A DNA stretch of 50,498 nt from Bacteroidales bacterium (GTDB lineage Bacteria > Bacteroidota > Bacteroidia > Bacteroidales > UBA932), in NCBI GenBank assembly GCA_017616655.1, contig JAFZXU010000005.1, positions 1 to 50,498 of the forward strand, in the 5' to 3' direction. The position numbers were made by a program, and so were the translations under genes. The notes beneath the pieces were generated by a model. It did not search any database. It saw only the letters and a list, made by a program, of their open reading frames with translations, and had not been told where the DNA came from. Numbering within the stretch: position 1 is the first letter of the stretch; the number at the start of each line of letters is the position of its first letter. Of this stretch, positions 32,112-39,783 are shown piece by piece.

Positions 32112-32142
32112 TTTGCAAAGATACGATAATTCAGTAATTTTG
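32112..32142 (+). promoter_or_regulatory. Promoter of cvpA (and possibly the export cluster)
   Basis: TTTG (32112-32115), a 19-base spacer, then TAATTTTG (32135-32142): a textbook Bacteroides -33/-7 pair, 21 bases before the cvpA ATG. It overlaps the divergent ileS promoter box. Confidence 0.75.
32116..32123 (-). promoter_or_regulatory. -7 box (TATCTTTG) for ileS
   Basis: The minus-strand TATCTTTG fits TAnnTTTG, 32 bases before the ileS start at 32083. It interleaves with the cvpA promoter, so the two divergent genes may compete for polymerase. Confidence 0.6.
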
Positions 32143-32163: not shown

Positions 32164-32649
32164 ATGGGAACTGTAGATATTATAATACTTATATGCCTGA
32201 TGCCGTCGCTCTATTTCGGCATCAAGAACGGCCTGGTTAAGCAGATAATCTCATTCGCAGTCATCTATCTCGGCATCACCCTCTCCCTGAAATTCTCGGG
32301 CTCGGTGGAGCCTTATGTCCAGCAATATCTCCACCTGGAGGGCTTCTGGGCCAAATTCGTGGCCTTCATTGCCATCTTTTCGGTGGTCGCACTGGTCCTC
32401 TCCATCCTGGGTAACATAATCGACAAAGCCATCAAAGCCGGAGCCACCGGATTCCTCAACAGGGTGCTCGGTCTGCTCCTTTCGCTCTTCATCTTCATAC
32501 TTCTCACCGCCCTCCTGGTCTATATGGTCGATTCCCTCAACCAGGTCACGGGCCTGATTCCGAAAGAGAAACTCGCTGAGTCAAAGCTATATCCGCTTAT
32601 GCTGGATATAGCAAAAACGTTTTTTCCGTATTTGAAGTCGCTTTTCTAA
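32164..32649 (+). CDS. cvpA: CvpA family membrane protein
   Basis: 161 aa with four hydrophobic helices, starting MGTVDIIILICLMPSLYFGI, with the conserved GIKNGLVKQI after the first helix and a C-terminal helix around LLSLFIFILL. I chose the ATG at 32164 because the open frame from 32095 runs through the promoter. CvpA was named for its need in colicin V production in E. coli and is also linked to envelope stress; the biochemical role is unknown. Here it sits directly before a colicin-V-type export cluster on the same strand, 111 bases from the next small ORF. Confidence 0.88.
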   Translation: MGTVDIIILICLMPSLYFGIKNGLVKQIISFAVIYLGITLSLKFSGSVEPYVQQYLHLEGFWAKFVAFIAIFSVVALVLSILGNIIDKAIKAGATGFLNRVLGLLLSLFIFILLTALLVYMVDSLNQVTGLIPKEKLAESKLYPLMLDIAKTFFPYLKSLF

Positions 32650-32655
32650 AAAAGT

Positions 32656-32679
32656 GATGGCCCGACAAAATGGGCCATC
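32656..32679. repeat. Inverted repeat between cvpA and the export cluster
   Basis: GATGGCCC-GACAAAAT-GGGCCATC, 7 bases after the cvpA stop. On the plus strand no U-run follows, so it is at best a weak terminator or an RNA-stability hairpin. On the minus strand it is followed by a T-run, but no minus-strand gene ends here. Confidence 0.5.
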
Positions 32680-32760: not shown

Positions 32761-32907
32761 ATGGAACGCGAAGAAAAGGTATTGCCGCTGGATGAACTCG
32801 AAGTGACCGTGGACGGCCTGCTGCCCAAGGCGAGCAGGGCCGCCAGGAGTTTCTACATCGCAATGATGCTGCTTCTTTTGATGCTTTTTGCAGCGATACT
32901 TATATGA
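32761..32907 (+). CDS. Small membrane peptide (48 aa) at the head of the peptide-export cluster
   Basis: ATG at 32761, TGA at 32905. The N-terminal half is polar (MEREEKVLPLDELEVTVDG) and is followed by LPKASRAARS and a C-terminal transmembrane helix (FYIAMMLLLLMLFAAILI). No signal peptide or GG leader. It ends 64 bases before the ATG I chose for the ABC exporter. I do not recognise a family. Location in the cluster and a single helix make it a candidate immunity or accessory protein; that is inference only. The frame is open back to the cvpA stop but has no earlier ATG. Confidence 0.5.
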   Translation: MEREEKVLPLDELEVTVDGLLPKASRAARSFYIAMMLLLLMLFAAILI

Positions 32908-32971
32908 ATAGACCGGGGGAGCAGTGAAGAAGACATTGTGCCGGGAGGAGCTCCCCCTTATTGGAAAAGAG

Positions 32972-35080
32972 ATGAAAACCGATATCAAACAGCACGACAT
33001 CACCGATTGCGCAGCAGCGGTAATCTGCTCGGTGGCACGGCATTACGGAAGGGAGATTCCCCTGACCGCGATACGCGAGGCCTCCGGCACGAACACCCTC
33101 GGGACCTCCATTAAAGGGGTTCTCGACGCCTGCACCGCGCTGGGATTCCGGGCGGGCGGATACAAATCTCCGGAGAAGGATTTCGAACCGCTCCGGAAGG
33201 TTCCCCTCCCCGTGGTGCTGCACACTGTCAACAAGAGGGGCGATCTCCATTTCGTGGTGCTCTACGGCCTGAAAAAGGGGAAGGCGATCATAATGGATCC
33301 CGCCCCGGGAAAACATGTCAGAATAACGGAGGCCGAGCTCCGCGAAATGTGGACCGGCTACCTCATAGTCATAACCCCGGATCCGGGCAAGGCTCTTTTC
33401 TCACAACCTGCTGTTTCGCCTCTGAAACAATTCTTTACAATTCTTGCTTCTATCAAATCAATCGATTTTCCGTATGCCTTGCTCGGATCCTTTTTCTCGA
33501 TTTTCAGCGGAATCGTAACTGCCATATTCCTGCAGAAGACGATAGATGCCATACTGCCCGGAGGTGATGTCTCTGCCCTGGCGAGGGCAGTGCTCCTGAT
33601 TGCGGCACTCTCCATTTGCTCGCTTGGGATCTCCTTCCTGCGAGCCATATACGCCCTGCGGGCAGGCCTCAGGATCGACGGAAACCTCATCCTGGGATAC
33701 CTCAGAAGCCTCTTCCGCCTCCCGACCGGGTTCTTCGCCCACCGAGGGGCGGGAGAACTGAATTCCCGAATCGCAGACGCCGTCAAGGTGAGGGCCTTCC
33801 TGACCGAAGGGATCACTTCGGCAATTACGGGATTCTTCATGCTTTCGGCCTCCTTCGCCCTGATGTTCCACTACAACTGGAATCTTGCGCTGCTTACGGC
33901 GGCTTTCATCCCCCTCTACATCCTGCTTTTCATCATCTCCGACCACGTGAACCGGAAGGTAAAACGGGAGGTGATCGAGAGCGCTGCCGCTTTCGAGGAG
34001 AAGAGTGTGGAGAGCATCTCATCCATCCGGACGATAAAGTATTTCGACAGCAGCGGAAGGGGATATCTGTCCCTGGAAAGGCGCTACGCGGAGCTGAGCG
34101 GCAACGTTTACCGCGGAGGAAAGTGGCTCGACATCTTCGCCACGGCCGGCGAGGGGCTCAACACCATAATGATGCTGACCATCCTCTCATACGGCTCGCT
34201 GCTGGTAATCAGGGGAAGCCTGACCGCCGGAGGGCTGGTGTCGTTCTACTCGTTGATGGCCTACTTCTCCTCCCCTCTCGGACAGCTGGCTGCCATCAGC
34301 GACGGATACAACGAGGCGAAGATTTCGCTCGAGAGGCTCAGGGACATCACCTGCCTTGAGCCCGAGGGAGGAGTATGCGCCTTTTTCCCGCTCGACGGCA
34401 GCGAAGATATAGAATTCAGGGATGTAGAGTTCTCCTATCCGGGATCACCTCCCCTTCTGGAGGGGTTCAACGCCCTCTTCCGGGCCGGGAAGATAACCGC
34501 CGTCCGCGGAGAGAGCGGATGCGGAAAGAGCTCGCTCGCCGCCCTGCTGATGAGGGATTACAAGGTCGGCTCGGGCAGGATACTGGCCGGAGGCACCGAC
34601 ATCTCCATCATCGACCTCGGGCAGTGGCGGAGCCATATCACCATTGTTCCTCAGGAGCCCTCGCTGATGAATGCTTCGATACTCGACAATATCACAGGCG
34701 GAAGCTCGGACCCCGACCTGAAGAGGGTCGGCGCCCTGCTGGACGAGCTGGGAATGAAGGAGTTCGTCACTTCCCTGCCCACCGGCCTGCTGACCGTCAT
34801 AGGGGAACGGGGCGCCCTCCTGTCCGGAGGACAGCGGCAGCGGATCGCCCTCGCAAGGGCACTCTACCGCAACCCCAAGGTACTCATACTGGACGAGGCC
34901 ACCTCCTCCCTGGACGCCGAATCGCAGGGCTTCATCCTGCGCAAGGTCATCTCATTCAGGGATGAGGGAGGAACGGTGATAATGATAACCCACCGCAGCG
35001 ACAACGCTGCCATCGCAGATTATACGATAGATATGAATGAGTGCGCACTCAGCGGGCAATTTGCGGAGGCCCGGATATGA
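32972..35080 (+). CDS. Peptidase-containing ABC transporter (C39 peptidase, bacteriocin exporter type)
   Basis: Removes a GG-type leader and exports the peptide across the inner membrane. 702 aa from the ATG at 32972, preceded by GGAAAAGAG; a GTG at 32924 in the same frame is possible. Domain order: C39 peptidase (1-130) with the oxyanion Gln and catalytic Cys in QHDITDC (C13), His in DLHFVVLYG near 93 and Asp in IMDPAPG near 109; six-helix membrane domain (about 160-430); ATPase with Walker A GESGCGKSS near 512, Q-loop VPQEPS, signature LLSGGQRQR near 616, Walker B LILDEATSSLD near 639 and switch His in MITHRSD. All catalytic residues are intact. Two GG-leader peptide genes begin 31 bases after its stop. 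Confidence 0.95.
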   Translation: MKTDIKQHDITDCAAAVICSVARHYGREIPLTAIREASGTNTLGTSIKGVLDACTALGFRAGGYKSPEKDFEPLRKVPLPVVLHTVNKRGDLHFVVLYGLKKGKAIIMDPAPGKHVRITEAELREMWTGYLIVITPDPGKALFSQPAVSPLKQFFTILASIKSIDFPYALLGSFFSIFSGIVTAIFLQKTIDAILPGGDVSALARAVLLIAALSICSLGISFLRAIYALRAGLRIDGNLILGYLRSLFRLPTGFFAHRGAGELNSRIADAVKVRAFLTEGITSAITGFFMLSASFALMFHYNWNLALLTAAFIPLYILLFIISDHVNRKVKREVIESAAAFEEKSVESISSIRTIKYFDSSGRGYLSLERRYAELSGNVYRGGKWLDIFATAGEGLNTIMMLTILSYGSLLVIRGSLTAGGLVSFYSLMAYFSSPLGQLAAISDGYNEAKISLERLRDITCLEPEGGVCAFFPLDGSEDIEFRDVEFSYPGSPPLLEGFNALFRAGKITAVRGESGCGKSSLAALLMRDYKVGSGRILAGGTDISIIDLGQWRSHITIVPQEPSLMNASILDNITGGSSDPDLKRVGALLDELGMKEFVTSLPTGLLTVIGERGALLSGGQRQRIALARALYRNPKVLILDEATSSLDAESQGFILRKVISFRDEGGTVIMITHRSDNAAIADYTIDMNECALSGQFAEARI

Positions 35081-35111
35081 AACTTCCGCAAACCATTAAA
35101 CCAAAACAGCT

Positions 35112-35303
35112 ATGGAAGAAAAAATGTTGAAGGATTCGGGGTTGTTGGAAATGACTTCTTCCGAACTCTGCCTGAGGGGCGGCGCAAGCAAGGCCCTCGA
35201 AACGATCTTCACCAAGGTCAGGTACGTCATCAATTTCATCGCCGACTATGTGCCCAAGTTCCTCAAGGGCATCTCTGACGGCTTCGGATTATCGATTTTC
35301 TAG
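35112..35303 (+). CDS. Double-glycine leader peptide A (bacteriocin-like precursor)
   Basis: 63 aa. A leader of 24 residues ends SSELCLRGG, a GG cleavage site for the neighbouring C39 exporter. The predicted mature part is 39 residues, starts ASKALETIFTK and ends DGFGLSIF. It is amphipathic with a weak positive charge (five Lys/Arg, three Asp/Glu) and has a GxxxG motif (GISDG). The leader's Glu-Leu pair is one position closer to GG than in the usual LSxxELxxIxGG pattern. It starts 31 bases after the exporter and 12 bases before peptide B. Alternative roles are a signalling peptide or another exported small protein. Confidence 0.8.
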   Translation: MEEKMLKDSGLLEMTSSELCLRGGASKALETIFTKVRYVINFIADYVPKFLKGISDGFGLSIF

Positions 35304-35315
35304 GAGGGCCGGATC

Positions 35316-35486
35316 ATGAAAGAACTCAACGTAACCGGACTTGTCGCCCTATCCGGAAACGAGGCGGCGGCCGTTTTCGGCGGCGTCGACAAGGGCGCCC
35401 AGGAAACGCTCTATCTGGTGGGATATGTGATCGGCGTCATCGCAAAGGTGTTCGTCAGCATCTTTACCTTCATTAAGAGGAGATAA
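35316..35486 (+). CDS. Double-glycine leader peptide B (bacteriocin-like precursor)
   Basis: 56 aa, ATG at 35316 and TAA at 35484. The leader of 23 residues ends LSGNEAAAVFGG, which fits LSxxELxxIxGG in position and character. The predicted mature part is 33 residues, starts VDKGAQETLYL, has a GxxxG motif (GYVIG), a hydrophobic helix and a basic end (TFIKRR). The gene follows AGGAGG 11 bases before the ATG and ends 9 bases before the TolC-like gene. Two adjacent GG precursors, each with GxxxG in the predicted mature part, are what class IIb two-peptide bacteriocins look like. Confidence 0.8.
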   Translation: MKELNVTGLVALSGNEAAAVFGGVDKGAQETLYLVGYVIGVIAKVFVSIFTFIKRR

Positions 35487-35495
35487 TCATCGCCT

Positions 35496-36797
35496 ATGCG
35501 GGGATTCATCCTGACTCTGCTGCTGGCAGCATCGCTGCCGCTGTGCGCTTCCGAGCCGCTATCTCTCGAGAGATGCATCGCCATAGCGCTTAAGGAGGAC
35601 CGGTCACTCCGCCAGGGGGAGATAACCCTTGCCGAGAACCGATCCAAGGCGGCACTGTCAATCATGGATTGGATTCCCGAGATCAATGTCGGAGCCGGAA
35701 ACGATTTCAACTGGGGCCGTTCGGTGGACATGCAGGAACTGCTCATCGTGGACAACCATATGACGCTCACCGCATCCTTTTCAGCAAGTGCCTCATTCTC
35801 ACTGACTAAGGGATTTCTCAACGGAATGCAGAGAGAGGCCTTGTTCCTGGACGGAAAGAGCGCTGAACTGACGAACTCTCAGGCTGAAACTGAAGTGGCG
35901 GCAAGGGTGACCGGAGCCTTTTTCCAGATCCTCCTTTGCAGCCAGGCCTGCGAGATCTGCCGGCGCAATTCCGCTGAAATCGACTCGAAACTGGAAAGTG
36001 CCTCCGCAGAGGCGGAAGCCGGAAGCAGAGCCATGGCCGATCTGTACGAACTTGAGGCTCAGGCATACAGGGAACGGTTTGCCTTGCAGGAGGCCCGTAA
36101 CAAATTGAGAATCGCCGAGATGACATTGTGTGACTATTTGAATCTGCCGCCGGAGGAGGGGATTACGCTCCTGCCTCCGACGGGAGATTCCCTTCCCGCA
36201 CCTCCGGATGCCGGGATTATTCTTGCCGATGATTTCCCGAAGGCCCCCTCTGTCGAACTCGCCCTGAACCGTCTCGAAAGGGACAGGATCCAGGTCAGGA
36301 TTGCAAAGGCGGCTTTCCTGCCCGACCTTACTGTAGCCGGTGGATGCGGTACCTATTATAGCAGTACCGGAGGCGGCGGATTCATGGAGCAGGTAAAGGG
36401 GAATGTCAATCCCTCGGCCGGCATAACCCTCTCAATCCCCATCATAGACGGTTCGGCCAACACGCGGAACCTGGCAGGTGCCAGGGCGCAGCTTGCACGG
36501 CAGGAGATCGAAGTGGAGAAGGTGCGGCAAGAGGCGGCCTCCGCCCTGCGTGAAGCCATCGCCGAGGCTGCGAATCTCTATGGGAACTGCAAGGCGGCAG
36601 AAGCCGGCTTCAAGGCCGCTTCGGCAGTTGAAAGGATTGCGCAGGAGCGCTTCGGCAGCGGAGAAATCTCCGGAGCGGACTATCTTGCGGCGCGCAACGC
36701 AAGGCTGCGGGCGGAGGCCCAGACGCTACAGGCCAGATACCGTTACCTGCTGCAGCTCAAGCTTTTGGAATGCCGTTACGGCATCATGACATATTGA
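35496..36797 (+). CDS. TolC-family outer membrane channel protein
   Basis: 433 aa with a signal peptide ending near LCASE. The opening LSLERCIAIALKEDRSLRQGEITLAENRSKA is the repeated TolC-type helix start. A second half with long Ala/Glu-rich helices (about 310-420) matches the OEP repeat. It would form the outer-membrane exit duct for the ABC exporter and adaptor. It starts 9 bases after peptide B and ends one base before the adaptor gene, so it is coupled to both. Confidence 0.92.
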   Translation: MRGFILTLLLAASLPLCASEPLSLERCIAIALKEDRSLRQGEITLAENRSKAALSIMDWIPEINVGAGNDFNWGRSVDMQELLIVDNHMTLTASFSASASFSLTKGFLNGMQREALFLDGKSAELTNSQAETEVAARVTGAFFQILLCSQACEICRRNSAEIDSKLESASAEAEAGSRAMADLYELEAQAYRERFALQEARNKLRIAEMTLCDYLNLPPEEGITLLPPTGDSLPAPPDAGIILADDFPKAPSVELALNRLERDRIQVRIAKAAFLPDLTVAGGCGTYYSSTGGGGFMEQVKGNVNPSAGITLSIPIIDGSANTRNLAGARAQLARQEIEVEKVRQEAASALREAIAEAANLYGNCKAAEAGFKAASAVERIAQERFGSGEISGADYLAARNARLRAEAQTLQARYRYLLQLKLLECRYGIMTY

Positions 36798-36798
36798 A

Positions 36799-37971
36799 AT
36801 GAAACGAAGGAACAAGGTTATCGGTGCCGCTCTCTGCGCCTTGGCAGTATTCGTCATACTGGCAAGCCGCGGATGCGGGGAGAAGGTGCCGGAAGTGGAG
36901 GCCGTCAGGGTCTGCCGGGGCGAAATCGTAGAATCCATTCCCGCAGGCGGCAAGATCCGCCCCATGACAGAAGTGGAGATAGCTGCCGAAGTCTCCGGCG
37001 AGATTGTCTTTCTGCCCATTTCAGAAGGGGATGCCGTCAAAAAAGGGCAGGTACTGCTGAAGATAAGGCAGGACAGCTACCTGGCAGCCCTTGAGAGCGC
37101 GCAGGCCTCTCTAGGAATGCTGAGGGCCGAATATGAGCAGCAGCGGCTCAAAGCCGAAGAGGCCGCCGTCGAATTGGAGAGGGCGAAATCGCTCTGTGAG
37201 AAGGAGGCTGCACCGCAGAGCAGGCTTGAAAGCGCCCAGGCCTCAAAACGGATTGCCGATTCCCAGCTGGAGGCGGCCGGATATGCCGTGCAGCGCGGTG
37301 AAGCGGCACTCAGGGAGGCTGAGGATAACCTCTCGCGGACAGTCATAACCTCACCTATGGACGGCACCGTCACCCTCCTTGCCGTGAAAAAGGGAGAGAG
37401 GATTGTCGGCACCAGCCAGATGGCGGGCACCCTGATAATGCGCATCGCCGATCTCTCCGAGATGGAACTCATCGTGAATGTCGGGGAAAACGACGTTGTC
37501 AGGATCCACGAAGGCGACAGTGCCGGAATCACCGTAGATGCCTTCGGAAAGGGGAATTTCAAGGGAAGAGTGACAAAAATCGCAAATTCCGCCAAGTTTG
37601 TTGACGGAACCTTCGGGCAAGTTACTAACTTTGAGGTCCGGATTGCAATGCTTGCCGACTCCGCGGATGGCGGCGCTTTCGTGCCGAAACCGGGACTGTC
37701 GGCCTCCGCATCCATCAGAAGCGCCTCGGAGAGGGATATCCTGAAGGTTCCCGCCGGAGCGGTTTTCCTGAAGGAACGCCGGGAGCGGCTCTGGGTGGTG
37801 AAGGAGGGCAAGGTGCACTCCGTGAAAATTGAAACCGGTTTACAGGACCTGGACTTCGTCGGCATACTGGGCGGCGTCAAGGAGGGTGAGATGGTGGTGA
37901 CAGCCCCCGCATCAGCCATCTCCGGAGGGCTTTCCGAAGGGATGAAGGTAAAGGTCCGAAACAGTGAATAG
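36799..37971 (+). CDS. HlyD-family periplasmic adaptor (membrane fusion protein)
   Basis: 390 aa. An N-terminal uncleaved membrane helix (residues about 7-25) is followed by a lipoyl half (VEIAAEVSGEIVFLPISEGDAVKKGQ), a long coiled-coil hairpin (about 95-185), the second lipoyl half (TSPMDGTVTLLAVKKGERI) and beta-barrel domains. It would bridge the ABC exporter and the TolC-like channel. The sequence looks closer to MacA/efflux-type adaptors than to long CvaA-type ones, by length and the TFGQVTNFEVRI segment. The stop is 3 bases before tsaB. Confidence 0.92.
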   Translation: MKRRNKVIGAALCALAVFVILASRGCGEKVPEVEAVRVCRGEIVESIPAGGKIRPMTEVEIAAEVSGEIVFLPISEGDAVKKGQVLLKIRQDSYLAALESAQASLGMLRAEYEQQRLKAEEAAVELERAKSLCEKEAAPQSRLESAQASKRIADSQLEAAGYAVQRGEAALREAEDNLSRTVITSPMDGTVTLLAVKKGERIVGTSQMAGTLIMRIADLSEMELIVNVGENDVVRIHEGDSAGITVDAFGKGNFKGRVTKIANSAKFVDGTFGQVTNFEVRIAMLADSADGGAFVPKPGLSASASIRSASERDILKVPAGAVFLKERRERLWVVKEGKVHSVKIETGLQDLDFVGILGGVKEGEMVVTAPASAISGGLSEGMKVKVRNSE

Positions 37972-37974
37972 AAA

Positions 37975-38655
37975 ATGGAACATCCTGTCATACTGATGAT
38001 TGAAACCAGCACCGAATGGTGCTCCGTCGCCGTTTCGGCGGGCAGGCGGATTATCTCACGACGCATTACCGAAACCGGAAGGCAGCACGCCTCCCTCCTC
38101 GCCCCTTTCGTGGACGAGGCGCTCAAGGAGACTGGGCTTAAGGCCTTCGAGTGCGATGCCGTGGCGGTAAGCGAAGGGCCCGGATCCTATACCGGACTGC
38201 GCGTAGGGGTCTCAACAGCGAAAGGCATCTGCTTCGGAGCGGGCATTCCGCTGCTGGCGGTCGACACCCTCCGTATCCTGGCGATGCAGGGAGCCGGCAA
38301 GGCGGAGTTCATCGTACCTATGATCGACGCCCGCAGGATGGAGGTCTATTGCGCACTCTTCGACGGAAATGGCGGCAGGCTGGAGGGAACCGAGGCCAGA
38401 ATCCTGGATGAAAGGAGTTTCTCCGACCTTCTGGAATCGCACAAGGTTCTCTTCATCGGGGACGGCGCGGCAAAGTTCGGCGAAATCTGCAGCCATCCCA
38501 ACGCTCTCTTCGAGAAGTGCTGCCCCGTGGCTGACGCGATGCTGATCCCCGCCATCGAGGCATACGAAAAAGAAGAGTTCAAAGACATTGCGTACTTTGA
38601 ACCCTTCTATCTCAAGGAATTCGTTGCCGGAATCAGCAGGAAATCAGTGCTATAG
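37975..38655 (+). CDS. tsaB: tRNA threonylcarbamoyladenosine biosynthesis protein TsaB
   Basis: Partner of TsaD in making t6A37 on ANN-decoding tRNAs. 226 aa. ASKHA-type N-terminus with LMIETSTEWCSVAV, then RQHASLLAPFVDEAL and the hallmark VSEGPGSYTGLRVGVSTAKG. Its ATG is 3 bases after the adaptor stop, so a housekeeping gene is the last member of the export cluster's transcript. It ends overlapping the convergent TlpA-like gene by 6 bases. Confidence 0.96.
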   Translation: MEHPVILMIETSTEWCSVAVSAGRRIISRRITETGRQHASLLAPFVDEALKETGLKAFECDAVAVSEGPGSYTGLRVGVSTAKGICFGAGIPLLAVDTLRILAMQGAGKAEFIVPMIDARRMEVYCALFDGNGGRLEGTEARILDERSFSDLLESHKVLFIGDGAAKFGEICSHPNALFEKCCPVADAMLIPAIEAYEKEEFKDIAYFEPFYLKEFVAGISRKSVL

Positions 38656-39783
38656 GCTTTTCTTCACCAAAGCTTCAAGTTCATTCTCCGCGAACACGTC
38701 GCGCGAAAGGACATCACCTTCACGGTTGATGACGAAAAGCGACGGCAACTGGCCTATATTATAAGCGACACGCGCGGGCGAACCGGCTCCGAGCCCGTCG
38801 TTTACGCTGATCCAAGGAAGTTCCTGGCTCTTGACGGTCGATGCCCACATCGCCTTGTCCACGTCGAGCGATACCTGATAGATCTCCAGCCCGGCATCGT
38901 GATACTTGGCGTAAAGGTCCTTCAATGTCTGATTGTACATCTTCTGGTCGGCATTGGCAGCGGTCCAGAACGAGAGGATGATCACCTTGCCTTCGAGGTC
39001 GGAAAGGATGCGGTCCCTGCCCTCCACGTCGGGAAGGTTGAGTTCCGGATAGGAGATGGTGCTCATCCTGTCGAGTTTCTGGTTCAGGTCGAAAGCCTGC
39101 TCGCGGCGGTTGATCTCATCGCCGAGGGCCACCACGTACTGCGATTTGGGATAAACAGTCTGAAGTGAATCGTAGAGCTGCTTGAAGAGAATCACGTCGG
39201 TGTGCTCGTTGAAGACCGGAAGCTGCTCGCTGAAGCGCTGGAAGGGGATTATTGCGGAGGTGATGGACTTGGGATTGTTCATAATCTGAGCCACTGCTCC
39301 GCGCTTGTAATCAATGTAGCTGCGGCTCATCTCGGTAGCCACCTTCGTATAGGCGTCATCGTCAGGAGCTGCGTTCAGCAGGTCGGCATAACGCTCCATA
39401 TCGACCCTTGCGGCATAGAATGCTTCGTCAATCTGCTTGAGGAGTGCGGATTCTTCGGAGCCCTCCACTTCATAGTCGTACGCACCGACCTTGACGGTGA
39501 CCTTGTCGCCCGGCAGCAGCACCAGCGCCGCAGCCTGACGTTCACCGTCGTAAAGATAGTAGAAAGTGGGAGTCTCGCCTGGCAGTTCAACCTTATAGTT
39601 GAAAGCGCCTTCCGTTCCCAATGTCAGGGTATCGACTTGGACGAGGCTGTTGAGATCGAGCCTCTGCAGGACCAGGCAGGTGTCGGAGAGCCCTTCGGCA
39701 GTACCGGAGAGCATAGCGGTGGGAGTCTTCGCGCAGGAGAACGTCAGAACCAGGGCAAGTGCCAGTATTACAACTCTTTTCAT
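38650..39783 (-). CDS. TlpA/thioredoxin-like lipoprotein lacking the redox cysteines
   Basis: 377 aa exported protein, probably a lipoprotein (LTFSC near residue 17). The N-terminal part (about 20-130) resembles the DUF4369 domain, and an alpha-helical middle follows. The C-terminal 140 residues are thioredoxin-like (PDVEGRDRILSDLEGKVIILSFW...). Where active members have WCxxC there is FWTAANADQKM, so disulfide chemistry is not possible at that site. The cis-Pro region QLPSLFVI is kept. Similar non-catalytic forms exist in Bacteroidales as far as I recall. It starts 4 bases after the HIT gene. A role in envelope protein binding is inference. Confidence 0.85.
   Translation of the reverse strand: MKRVVILALALVLTFSCAKTPTAMLSGTAEGLSDTCLVLQRLDLNSLVQVDTLTLGTEGAFNYKVELPGETPTFYYLYDGERQAAALVLLPGDKVTVKVGAYDYEVEGSEESALLKQIDEAFYAARVDMERYADLLNAAPDDDAYTKVATEMSRSYIDYKRGAVAQIMNNPKSITSAIIPFQRFSEQLPVFNEHTDVILFKQLYDSLQTVYPKSQYVVALGDEINRREQAFDLNQKLDRMSTISYPELNLPDVEGRDRILSDLEGKVIILSFWTAANADQKMYNQTLKDLYAKYHDAGLEIYQVSLDVDKAMWASTVKSQELPWISVNDGLGAGSPARVAYNIGQLPSLFVINREGDVLSRDVFAENELEALVKKSL

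What the first reader, a model, noticed from the sequence alone, without database searches (positions are those of the whole stretch)
32761..37971. Apparent two-peptide bacteriocin locus with its own three-part exporter
Seen: a C39-peptidase ABC transporter with all catalytic residues, two small genes with GG-type leaders (35112 and 35316), then TolC-like and HlyD-like genes, all on one strand with gaps of 1-31 bases. Both predicted mature peptides (39 and 33 residues) contain a GxxxG motif, as known for class IIb two-peptide bacteriocins, where it mediates helix pairing. Bacteroidales GG-leader peptides (bacteroidetocins) are known, but these two peptides do not look like that family to me. 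Inference: the pair is secreted and acts together, perhaps against related gut bacteria.
Basis: partly seen in the sequence, partly recalled or inferred. Interest (0 to 1): 0.85.

Follow-up and report, generated by a model that had tools for sequence, protein, structure and literature searches.

The report
Core two-peptide export locus in Bacteroidales
A pair of tiny secreted-peptide genes with their own export machinery sits at one place in the chromosome of a whole group of gut bacteria, inherited like a household gene rather than like the usual come-and-go bacterial toxin.

Summary
In detail: a C39-peptidase ABC exporter, two GG-leader ORFs (P1 35112-35303, P2 35316-35486), TolC and HlyD lie head to tail. 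A small membrane-protein gene (32761-32907) and tsaB, 3 nt after hlyD, belong to the arrangement. The pair is real: both ORFs were read directly in 76 genomes, they are under purifying selection, and GxxxG occurs in 69 of 70 distinct mature P1 and 63 of 76 P2.

The surprise is its evolution. It is present in 37 of 40 genomes of the genus (the misses look like assembly gaps), single-copy, between cvpA and tsaB, in ten genera of one Bacteroidales family, and its divergence follows ileS. It was probably added to an older orphan tolC-hlyD-tsaB unit. Other C39 genes in the genus are patchy (5 of 40). No obligatory immunity gene was found, and one sublineage keeps C39-P1-P2 without tolC-hlyD (7 of 7 loci).

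It looks like a two-peptide helix pair, but inheritance and missing immunity do not fit an ordinary bacteriocin. I slightly favour a producer-serving envelope or surface role; antibacterial action stays open. New variant of a known kind.

The parts
32112..32142 (+). Bacteroidetes-type promoter consensus (TTTG-N19-TANNTTTG) ending 21 nt before the cvpA start at 32164
   Evidence: 3 matches in the window, mean 0.22 in shuffles, 1 of 100 shuffles with 3 or more. Consensus recalled. May drive cvpA and, possibly, the cassette.
32164..32649 (+). cvpA family gene, conserved upstream neighbour; not judged part of the cassette (the 'colicin V production' name is a coincidence of annotation)
   Evidence: PF02674 E 8.4e-25; synteny; start codon
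32761..32907 (+). small tail-anchored membrane protein, 48 aa, function unknown
   Evidence: 33 of 36 genus loci whose upstream region is present; profile, 34 of 40 genus genomes; no Pfam match
32972..35080 (+). peptidase-containing (C39) ABC exporter; expected to cut leaders after GG and export
   Evidence: (solved relatives matched over the full length include bacteriocin transporter 4ry2 and ComA 8hf7)
35112..35303 (+). P1 precursor: leader 1-24, mature 25-63, amphipathic, Y46 and G53xxxG57
35316..35486 (+). P2 precursor: leader 1-23, mature 24-56, hydrophobic, G36xxxG40
35496..36797 (+). TolC-like outer-membrane channel (OEP)
   Evidence: PF02321 E 1.8e-41
36799..37971 (+). HlyD / RND_mfp periplasmic adaptor
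   Evidence: TIGR01730 174.8 bits (cut-off 94.9)
37975..38655 (+). tsaB, conserved downstream neighbour (3 nt after hlyD); housekeeping, not part of the mechanism
   Evidence: PF00814; synteny

Best explanation
This is a lineage-core two-peptide secretion module. Inferred from the families: the C39 domain cuts P1 and P2 after GG, and the peptides leave through C39-HlyD-TolC (or, where TolC-HlyD is not in the locus, reach the periplasm or use another adaptor). Shown in sequence: P1 is amphipathic, P2 is mostly more hydrophobic, and both keep GxxxG or, in part of the P2 set, AxxxG. Inferred: the two helices pair through these faces and the pair works at a membrane or cell surface. The way it is kept (single copy, one site, vertical, purifying selection, no obligatory immunity gene) makes me favour, narrowly, a job for the producer itself (envelope, surface, aggregation or kin recognition) over killing of rivals.
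For: Pair and order: both ORFs read directly in 76 genomes (48, 8, 20). Profile pairing: 103 of 133 P1 hits have a P2 hit directly downstream; of the 30 others I read 18 (14, 4) and all 18 have a P2-like ORF; 12 were not read. Core: C39 and P1 occur in the same 37 of 40 genus genomes; of the 3 misses, two also lack a tsaB match and one has tsaB cut by a contig end. Other C39 genes occur in 5 of those 40 genomes. Site: 44 of 49 loci run C39 to tsaB, 3 are cut by contig ends, 2 could not be assigned. Vertical: distances track ileS, r 0.77 C39, 0.71 P1, 0.71 P2, 0 of 499 permutations as high; the C39s of ten genera form one clade, support 0.997. Selection: dN/dS at most 0.31 for P1 and P2 in 14 informative of 15 pairs, a few with saturated dS. 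Helices: GxxxG counts; P2 conservation lies on one helical face (18 of 5000 permutations as high); P1 amphipathicity is reached by at most 10 of 300 shuffles in 15 of 18 representatives. Immunity: the small membrane gene was not found in G004, G008 and G027, whose peptide and exporter genes are there. Precedent for a non-killing role: EbfG peptides and PteB (PMC4997328 abstract).
Against: Two different GG-leader peptides with GxxxG in both is the pattern of two-peptide bacteriocins, and no non-killing heterodimer of this kind is known to me. Absence of an immunity gene is no proof, since bacteroidetocin producers seem to have none either (PMC6671954 passages). P1 conservation shows no significant helical period (1945 of 5000). 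Small-xxx-small is universal but only modestly above shuffles (70 of 70 against 53.1; 76 of 76 against 63.1). Within the genus the peptides diverge more (0.47, 0.48) than ileS (0.25) and tsaB (0.36). C39 of g21 and g17 at the same site fall outside the clade. One genome per species, many of them MAGs, so strain-level patchiness is unseen. No receptor or regulator gene was seen in the cassette.
Confidence: 0.45

Rival explanations
1. Two-peptide (class IIb-like or Cdz-like) antibacterial system that has become a fixed trait of the lineage: the mature helices pair and insert into membranes of competitors.
For: GG leaders, C39 exporter, adjacent peptide genes, GxxxG in both; P2 mostly cationic and, in 14 of 18 representatives, more hydrophobic than P1; Cdz of Caulobacter is a type I-secreted two-protein killing system of a Gram-negative with a small membrane immunity protein (PMC5380434 passages).
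Against: Core and vertical, whereas Cdz-like systems are described as mostly in only some isolates, many horizontally acquired, with the toxins varying more than the secretion genes (PMC5380434 passages). Here mean divergence within the genus is P1 0.47 and P2 0.48 against TolC 0.62, HlyD 0.45 and C39 0.43, so the peptides vary less than TolC and about as much as HlyD and C39. No obligatory immunity gene.
Confidence: 0.4
2. The peptides act in the periplasm or at the inner membrane of the producer, and TolC-HlyD is an optional partner inherited with the site.
For: 7 of 7 loci read of one g15 sublineage have C39-P1-P2 followed by tsaB with no tolC or hlyD match, and the two of these genomes searched (G053, G114) have no close HlyD elsewhere (best 32 and 31% identity, against 44 and 42% in locus in two other g15 genomes). 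The peptides stay constrained there (L071-L073 dN/dS 0.11 and 0.07). tolC-hlyD-tsaB exists without C39 in other families.
Against: In the other cassette loci read, apart from those cut by contig ends and L178, TolC and HlyD are beside the peptides; another adaptor could serve in g15.
Confidence: 0.12
3. The two ORFs are chance or decayed ORFs beside an efflux pump.
For: None found beyond their small size and lack of any confident family match.
Against: Frame, GG and neighbours kept in 76 genomes; dN below dS.
Confidence: 0.01

Closest known systems
Class IIb two-peptide bacteriocins (lactococcin G, plantaricin EF/JK, carnobacteriocin XY)
   Same: two adjacent leader-bearing genes, dedicated transporter, GxxxG or GxxxG-like motif in both core peptides (PMC6957408 passages); mature length here about 28-49 aa
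   Different: three-part Gram-negative exporter, no obligatory immunity gene, P1 often near neutral, core and vertical; killing untested
Cdz system, CdzC/CdzD/CdzI of Caulobacter crescentus (PMC5380434)
   Same: Gram-negative, two small exported proteins with glycine motifs, type I secretion, small membrane protein gene in the cluster
   Different: CdzC and CdzD are 86 and 84 aa with extended GxxxGxxxG zippers and 75% glycine and small hydrophobic residues, no TolC gene in the cluster, and CdzI is essential; ours are shorter with a single GxxxG, and the small membrane gene can be absent
Bacteroidetocins (PMC6671954, PMC8546649)
   Same: GG-leader peptides with a C39-type ABC exporter in Bacteroidales, no obvious immunity gene
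   Different: single peptide with four Cys, thiol oxidoreductase and 5-TM protein genes, target BamA; ours is a pair without disulfide potential and with TolC-HlyD
EbfG1-4 with PteB of Synechococcus elongatus (PMC4997328, abstract)
   Same: GG-motif small proteins whose export needs a C39-type peptidase transporter, with a role for the producer (biofilm)
   Different: cyanobacterial, four proteins; no sequence comparison made here

Membership tests
Class IIb two-peptide bacteriocin | two different adjacent GG-leader precursors | tested here: met
Class IIb two-peptide bacteriocin | GxxxG or GxxxG-like motif in both mature peptides | tested here: met
   69/70 P1 and 63/76 P2 with GxxxG; the 13 P2 exceptions printed carry AxxxG on reading; relaxed motif only modestly above shuffles
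Class IIb two-peptide bacteriocin | dedicated transporter plus accessory protein | tested here: met
   HlyD/TolC take the accessory place, not in the locus in 7 g15 loci
Class IIb two-peptide bacteriocin | cationic amphiphilic peptides (recalled) | tested here: inconclusive
   P1 amphipathic, but K/R minus D/E is -5 to +5 for P1 (mean 0.9, 53 peptides, one mis-cut) and -4 to +6 for P2 (mean 2.3, 57 peptides)
Class IIb two-peptide bacteriocin | dedicated immunity protein encoded with the peptides | tested here: not met
   Only candidate, the small membrane ORF, not found in 3 of 37 cassette genomes of the genus nor in 11 of 11 g2, g5, g11, g13, g15 loci scanned with a hydrophobicity cut-off. 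An unlinked immunity gene was not sought.
Class IIb two-peptide bacteriocin | both peptides needed for killing | not testable with these tools
   needs peptides and strains
[quoted passage not shown]
   Window only: P1 63 aa, P2 56 aa; each a single GxxxG (sequence)
Cdz-like | contact-dependent killing, surface aggregates | not testable with these tools
   -
Bacteroidetocin | four cysteines in the mature peptide | tested here: not met
   0 of 70 P1 and 0 of 76 P2 have 2 or more Cys
Bacteroidetocin | four-gene cluster with thiol oxidoreductase and 5-TM protein | tested here: not met
   Window ORFs 30-40.5 kb; the thioredoxin-like gene at 38650-39783 (named from its sequence, no family call) is an opposite-strand neighbour
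Peptidase-containing ABC transporter (PCAT) / type I secretion | C39 peptidase with Q, C, H, D, ABC membrane and ATPase domains, GG substrates nearby | tested here: met

The most novel reading that the evidence does not exclude
A core, vertically inherited, non-bacteriocin two-peptide system: a secreted (or periplasmic) helical heterodimer held by GxxxG contacts that serves the producing Bacteroidales cell or its kin, assembled by placing a C39 exporter and a duplicated peptide gene beside an ancient orphan tolC-hlyD pair.
Probability: 0.45. Interest if true: 0.8.

Novelty: new variant of a known kind. Interest (0 to 1): 0.6.

Why it matters
GG-leader peptides beside C39 exporters are readily called bacteriocins. 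Here is a pair with the bacteriocin look but the inheritance of a household gene, across ten genera of a Bacteroidales family that includes many rumen and gut members. That gives a clean, testable case of what else such peptides do, or, if they kill, of a toxin kept as a core trait without an obligatory linked immunity gene.

Tried and rejected
Family libraries gave no name: Pfam, NCBIfam and PHROGs show no confident match for the peptides; the best weak ones were PHROG 12926 (E 0.029) for P1 and, for 1 of 23 P2 members, NCBIfam 'CTB family bacteriocin' (E 0.0081). PDB profile searches with the peptide alignments gave only matches inside larger proteins (best E 0.00036 a TetR regulator, 0.0032 a prenyl diphosphate synthase), judged chance. 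Mobile or recently imported island: rejected; GC of the cassette 0.574 against 0.563 (sd 0.020) for 5.2-kb windows, fixed site and vertical signal. Small membrane ORF as obligatory immunity protein: rejected by its absence from G004, G008, G027. A claim that the mature parts are always more conserved than the leaders was dropped: true for P2 (1.60 against 1.44 bits), not for P1 (1.63 against 1.90). P1 and P2 as paralogues: profile comparison gives 94% probability, E 1.2e-7, over leader and mature part, likely tandem duplication, but the leader may drive it. P1 beyond the family: 5 of 295 order genomes matched, 2 of them in the family, 3 weak and inside frames of 232-1033 aa, rejected. C39 of all same-site loci as one clade: not met, g21 (L118) and g17 (L120) fall outside. 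Sigma-70 and terminator scans were near chance. Print: searches listed nothing that I recognised as this locus.
Full report
Observation. The window carries on the + strand a small membrane ORF (32761-32907), a C39-peptidase ABC exporter (start 32972, stop 35080), P1 (35112-35303), P2 (35316-35486), a TolC-like gene (35496-36797), an HlyD/RND_mfp gene (36799-37971) and tsaB (37975-38655), with gaps of 64, 31, 12, 9, 1 and 3 nt. Upstream lie ileS (-) and cvpA (+), downstream a thioredoxin-like gene, HIT and greA (-) (the names ileS, thioredoxin-like, HIT and greA are mine from the sequences). This C39 is the only one found in the genome.

Who it is. The window is one contig of a 2.09-Mb genome. 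The 27 named relatives found in genome contigs are mostly MAGs from ruminants and horse faeces, titled Bacteroidales or Bacteroidia bacterium, Bact_11 or Candidatus Cacconaster (taxonomy: Bacteroidales incertae sedis). I recall, from no call, that GTDB calls this genus Bact-11 in family UBA932.

Distribution. P1 as a single sequence was found in 36 of 39 other genomes of the genus (198 genomes searched, 69 with E up to 1, many weak). The P1 profile is found in 132 of 398 family genomes and 11 of 25 genera, the eleventh (g22) resting on one weak hit in a 1350-aa frame that I do not believe. The P2 profile matches in 135 of 398 genomes. I compared places using 103 P2 hits; 42 others were left out, 41 of them in frames of 132-717 aa that are not P2 and one (G289) a short leader-like match in a 60-aa frame. 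103 of 133 P1 hits have a P2 hit directly downstream. Of the 30 P1 hits without one, I read 18: 14 and 4 (G049, G051, G112, and G068, where only the P2 ORF was printed). All 18 have a P2-like GG ORF, too divergent for the profile. The other 12 were not read; one is a contig edge (G014), one the g22 hit. In the genus, C39 and P1 occur in the same 37 of 40 genomes. G007 and G020 show only the distant TsaD-like match for tsaB, and G012 has tsaB cut at a contig end, so assembly gaps explain the misses. Other C39 genes occur in only 5 of the 40. Outside the family nothing convincing was found in 295 order genomes.

Site. Of 49 loci fetched, 44 run from C39 to tsaB, 3 are cut by contig ends (L038, L050, L067) and 2 could not be assigned: L080 has no match to the 12 window proteins and L079 is a 6.2-kb contig with a divergent C39. 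Same-site loci were also found in g2, g6, g11, g13, g18 and in 20 more loci, of which L178 has no tolC, hlyD or tsaB match in the stretch fetched. In L074, L108, L113 and L116 the ileS-cvpA side is inverted or lies at the other end, with the C39-to-tsaB block intact. In g9, g16, g22 and g24 cvpA is followed directly by tsaB; in g10 only tolC remains, on the strand opposite to tsaB. HlyD next to tsaB occurs in 9 of 26 other loci examined (flanks of at most 1.5 kb). All 7 such loci fetched in wider context (five other families; g8 and g23 of this family) show tolC-hlyD-tsaB with no C39 match (L159 has only 1.7 kb upstream); in g8 (L164) cvpA stands before tolC, that is, the same arrangement without C39 and peptides. 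The simplest reading is an old orphan tolC-hlyD next to tsaB, to which C39 and a peptide pair were added in this family, with later losses.

Vertical inheritance and selection. Pairwise distances of C39, P1 and P2 follow those of ileS (r 0.77, 0.71, 0.71 over 50-53 loci; 0.86, 0.79, 0.75 within the genus; 0 of 499 permutations as high). The C39 proteins of ten genera (g1, g2, g4, g5, g6, g11, g12, g13, g15, g18) form one clade (0.997, midpoint root), but those of g21 (L118) and g17 (L120) at the same site do not join it. dN/dS of P1 and P2 is at most 0.31 in 14 informative pairs of 15, similar to or somewhat above neighbouring genes, with saturated dS in a few.

Peptides. P1 invariants in 25 sequences: M1, E2, E18, G23, G24, Y46, G53; P2 in 23: G22, G23, D25, G40 (the more divergent loci read later are not in these alignments). 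GxxxG in distinct mature peptides: P1 69 of 70, P2 63 of 76, expected 15.1 and 16.2 by shuffling; the relaxed small-xxx-small motif is universal but expected in 53.1 and 63.1. In the g15 sublineage without local tolC-hlyD, P2 has AxxxG instead, as it also has in some g4 loci and in g18. P1 amphipathicity is reached by at most 10 of 300 shuffles in 15 of 18 representatives; P2 is the more hydrophobic partner in 14 of 18; P2's conserved positions fall on one helical face (18 of 5000), P1's do not significantly (1945 of 5000). K/R minus D/E varies: P1 -5 to +5, P2 -4 to +6.

The small membrane gene. Found just upstream of C39 in 33 of 36 genus loci whose region is present and by profile in 34 of 40 genus genomes; not found in G004, G008 and G027 although their exporter and peptide genes are there. 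Similar ORFs were seen in one g4 locus and in g6, g12 and g18 loci, none in 11 g2, g5, g11, g13 and g15 loci scanned with a hydrophobicity cut-off. It could help the exporter or protect the cell, but it is not obligatory.

Mechanism and rivals. Role: the inheritance pattern, missing obligatory linked immunity and absence of TolC-HlyD from the locus in one lineage speak against a standard bacteriocin and slightly for a producer-serving role; the two-peptide GxxxG signature speaks for membrane activity and keeps the bacteriocin rival nearly level.

Literature seen. Passages: PMC6671954, PMC10352776, PMC5380434, PMC13289728, PMC6957408. Abstract and outline: PMC8546649, PMC4997328. Others: search listings only (one search returned none). 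None of what I saw describes this locus; the searches cover only the open-licence library.

Limits. One genome per species, many of them MAGs; no expression, no strain series, no activity data.

Noticed in passing
L071, L073, L173-L177 (genus g15 sublineage): C39-P1-P2 is followed by tsaB with no tolC or hlyD match in 7 of 7 loci, and P2 there carries AxxxG instead of GxxxG.
   Followed up: partly
L158-L164: tolC-hlyD-tsaB stands as a unit without a C39 match in five other Bacteroidales families and two genera of the same family, an orphan exporter pair beside a tRNA-modification gene.
   Followed up: partly
window 32656-32679: An 8-pair inverted repeat (GATGGCCC...GGGCCATC) lies between cvpA and the small membrane ORF; it may separate or attenuate transcription of the cassette.
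   Followed up: no
L079:4263-5379 (G090, g17): A divergent C39 (grouping with that of L120, which sits next to ileS-cvpA) is followed by three GG-type small ORFs before tolC; the first ends in a P1-like GFVDGF stretch, so this may be the g17 form of the locus.
   Followed up: partly
L165 (G048, genus g10): Only tolC remains at the site, on the strand opposite to tsaB; the one C39 found in that genome lies elsewhere (L117).
   Followed up: no
window 35496-37971: TolC and HlyD of the window and its closest relative (L032) share only 56 and 62% identity, while C39, tsaB and the peptides share 77-87%, so these two genes diverge unusually fast here.
   Followed up: no
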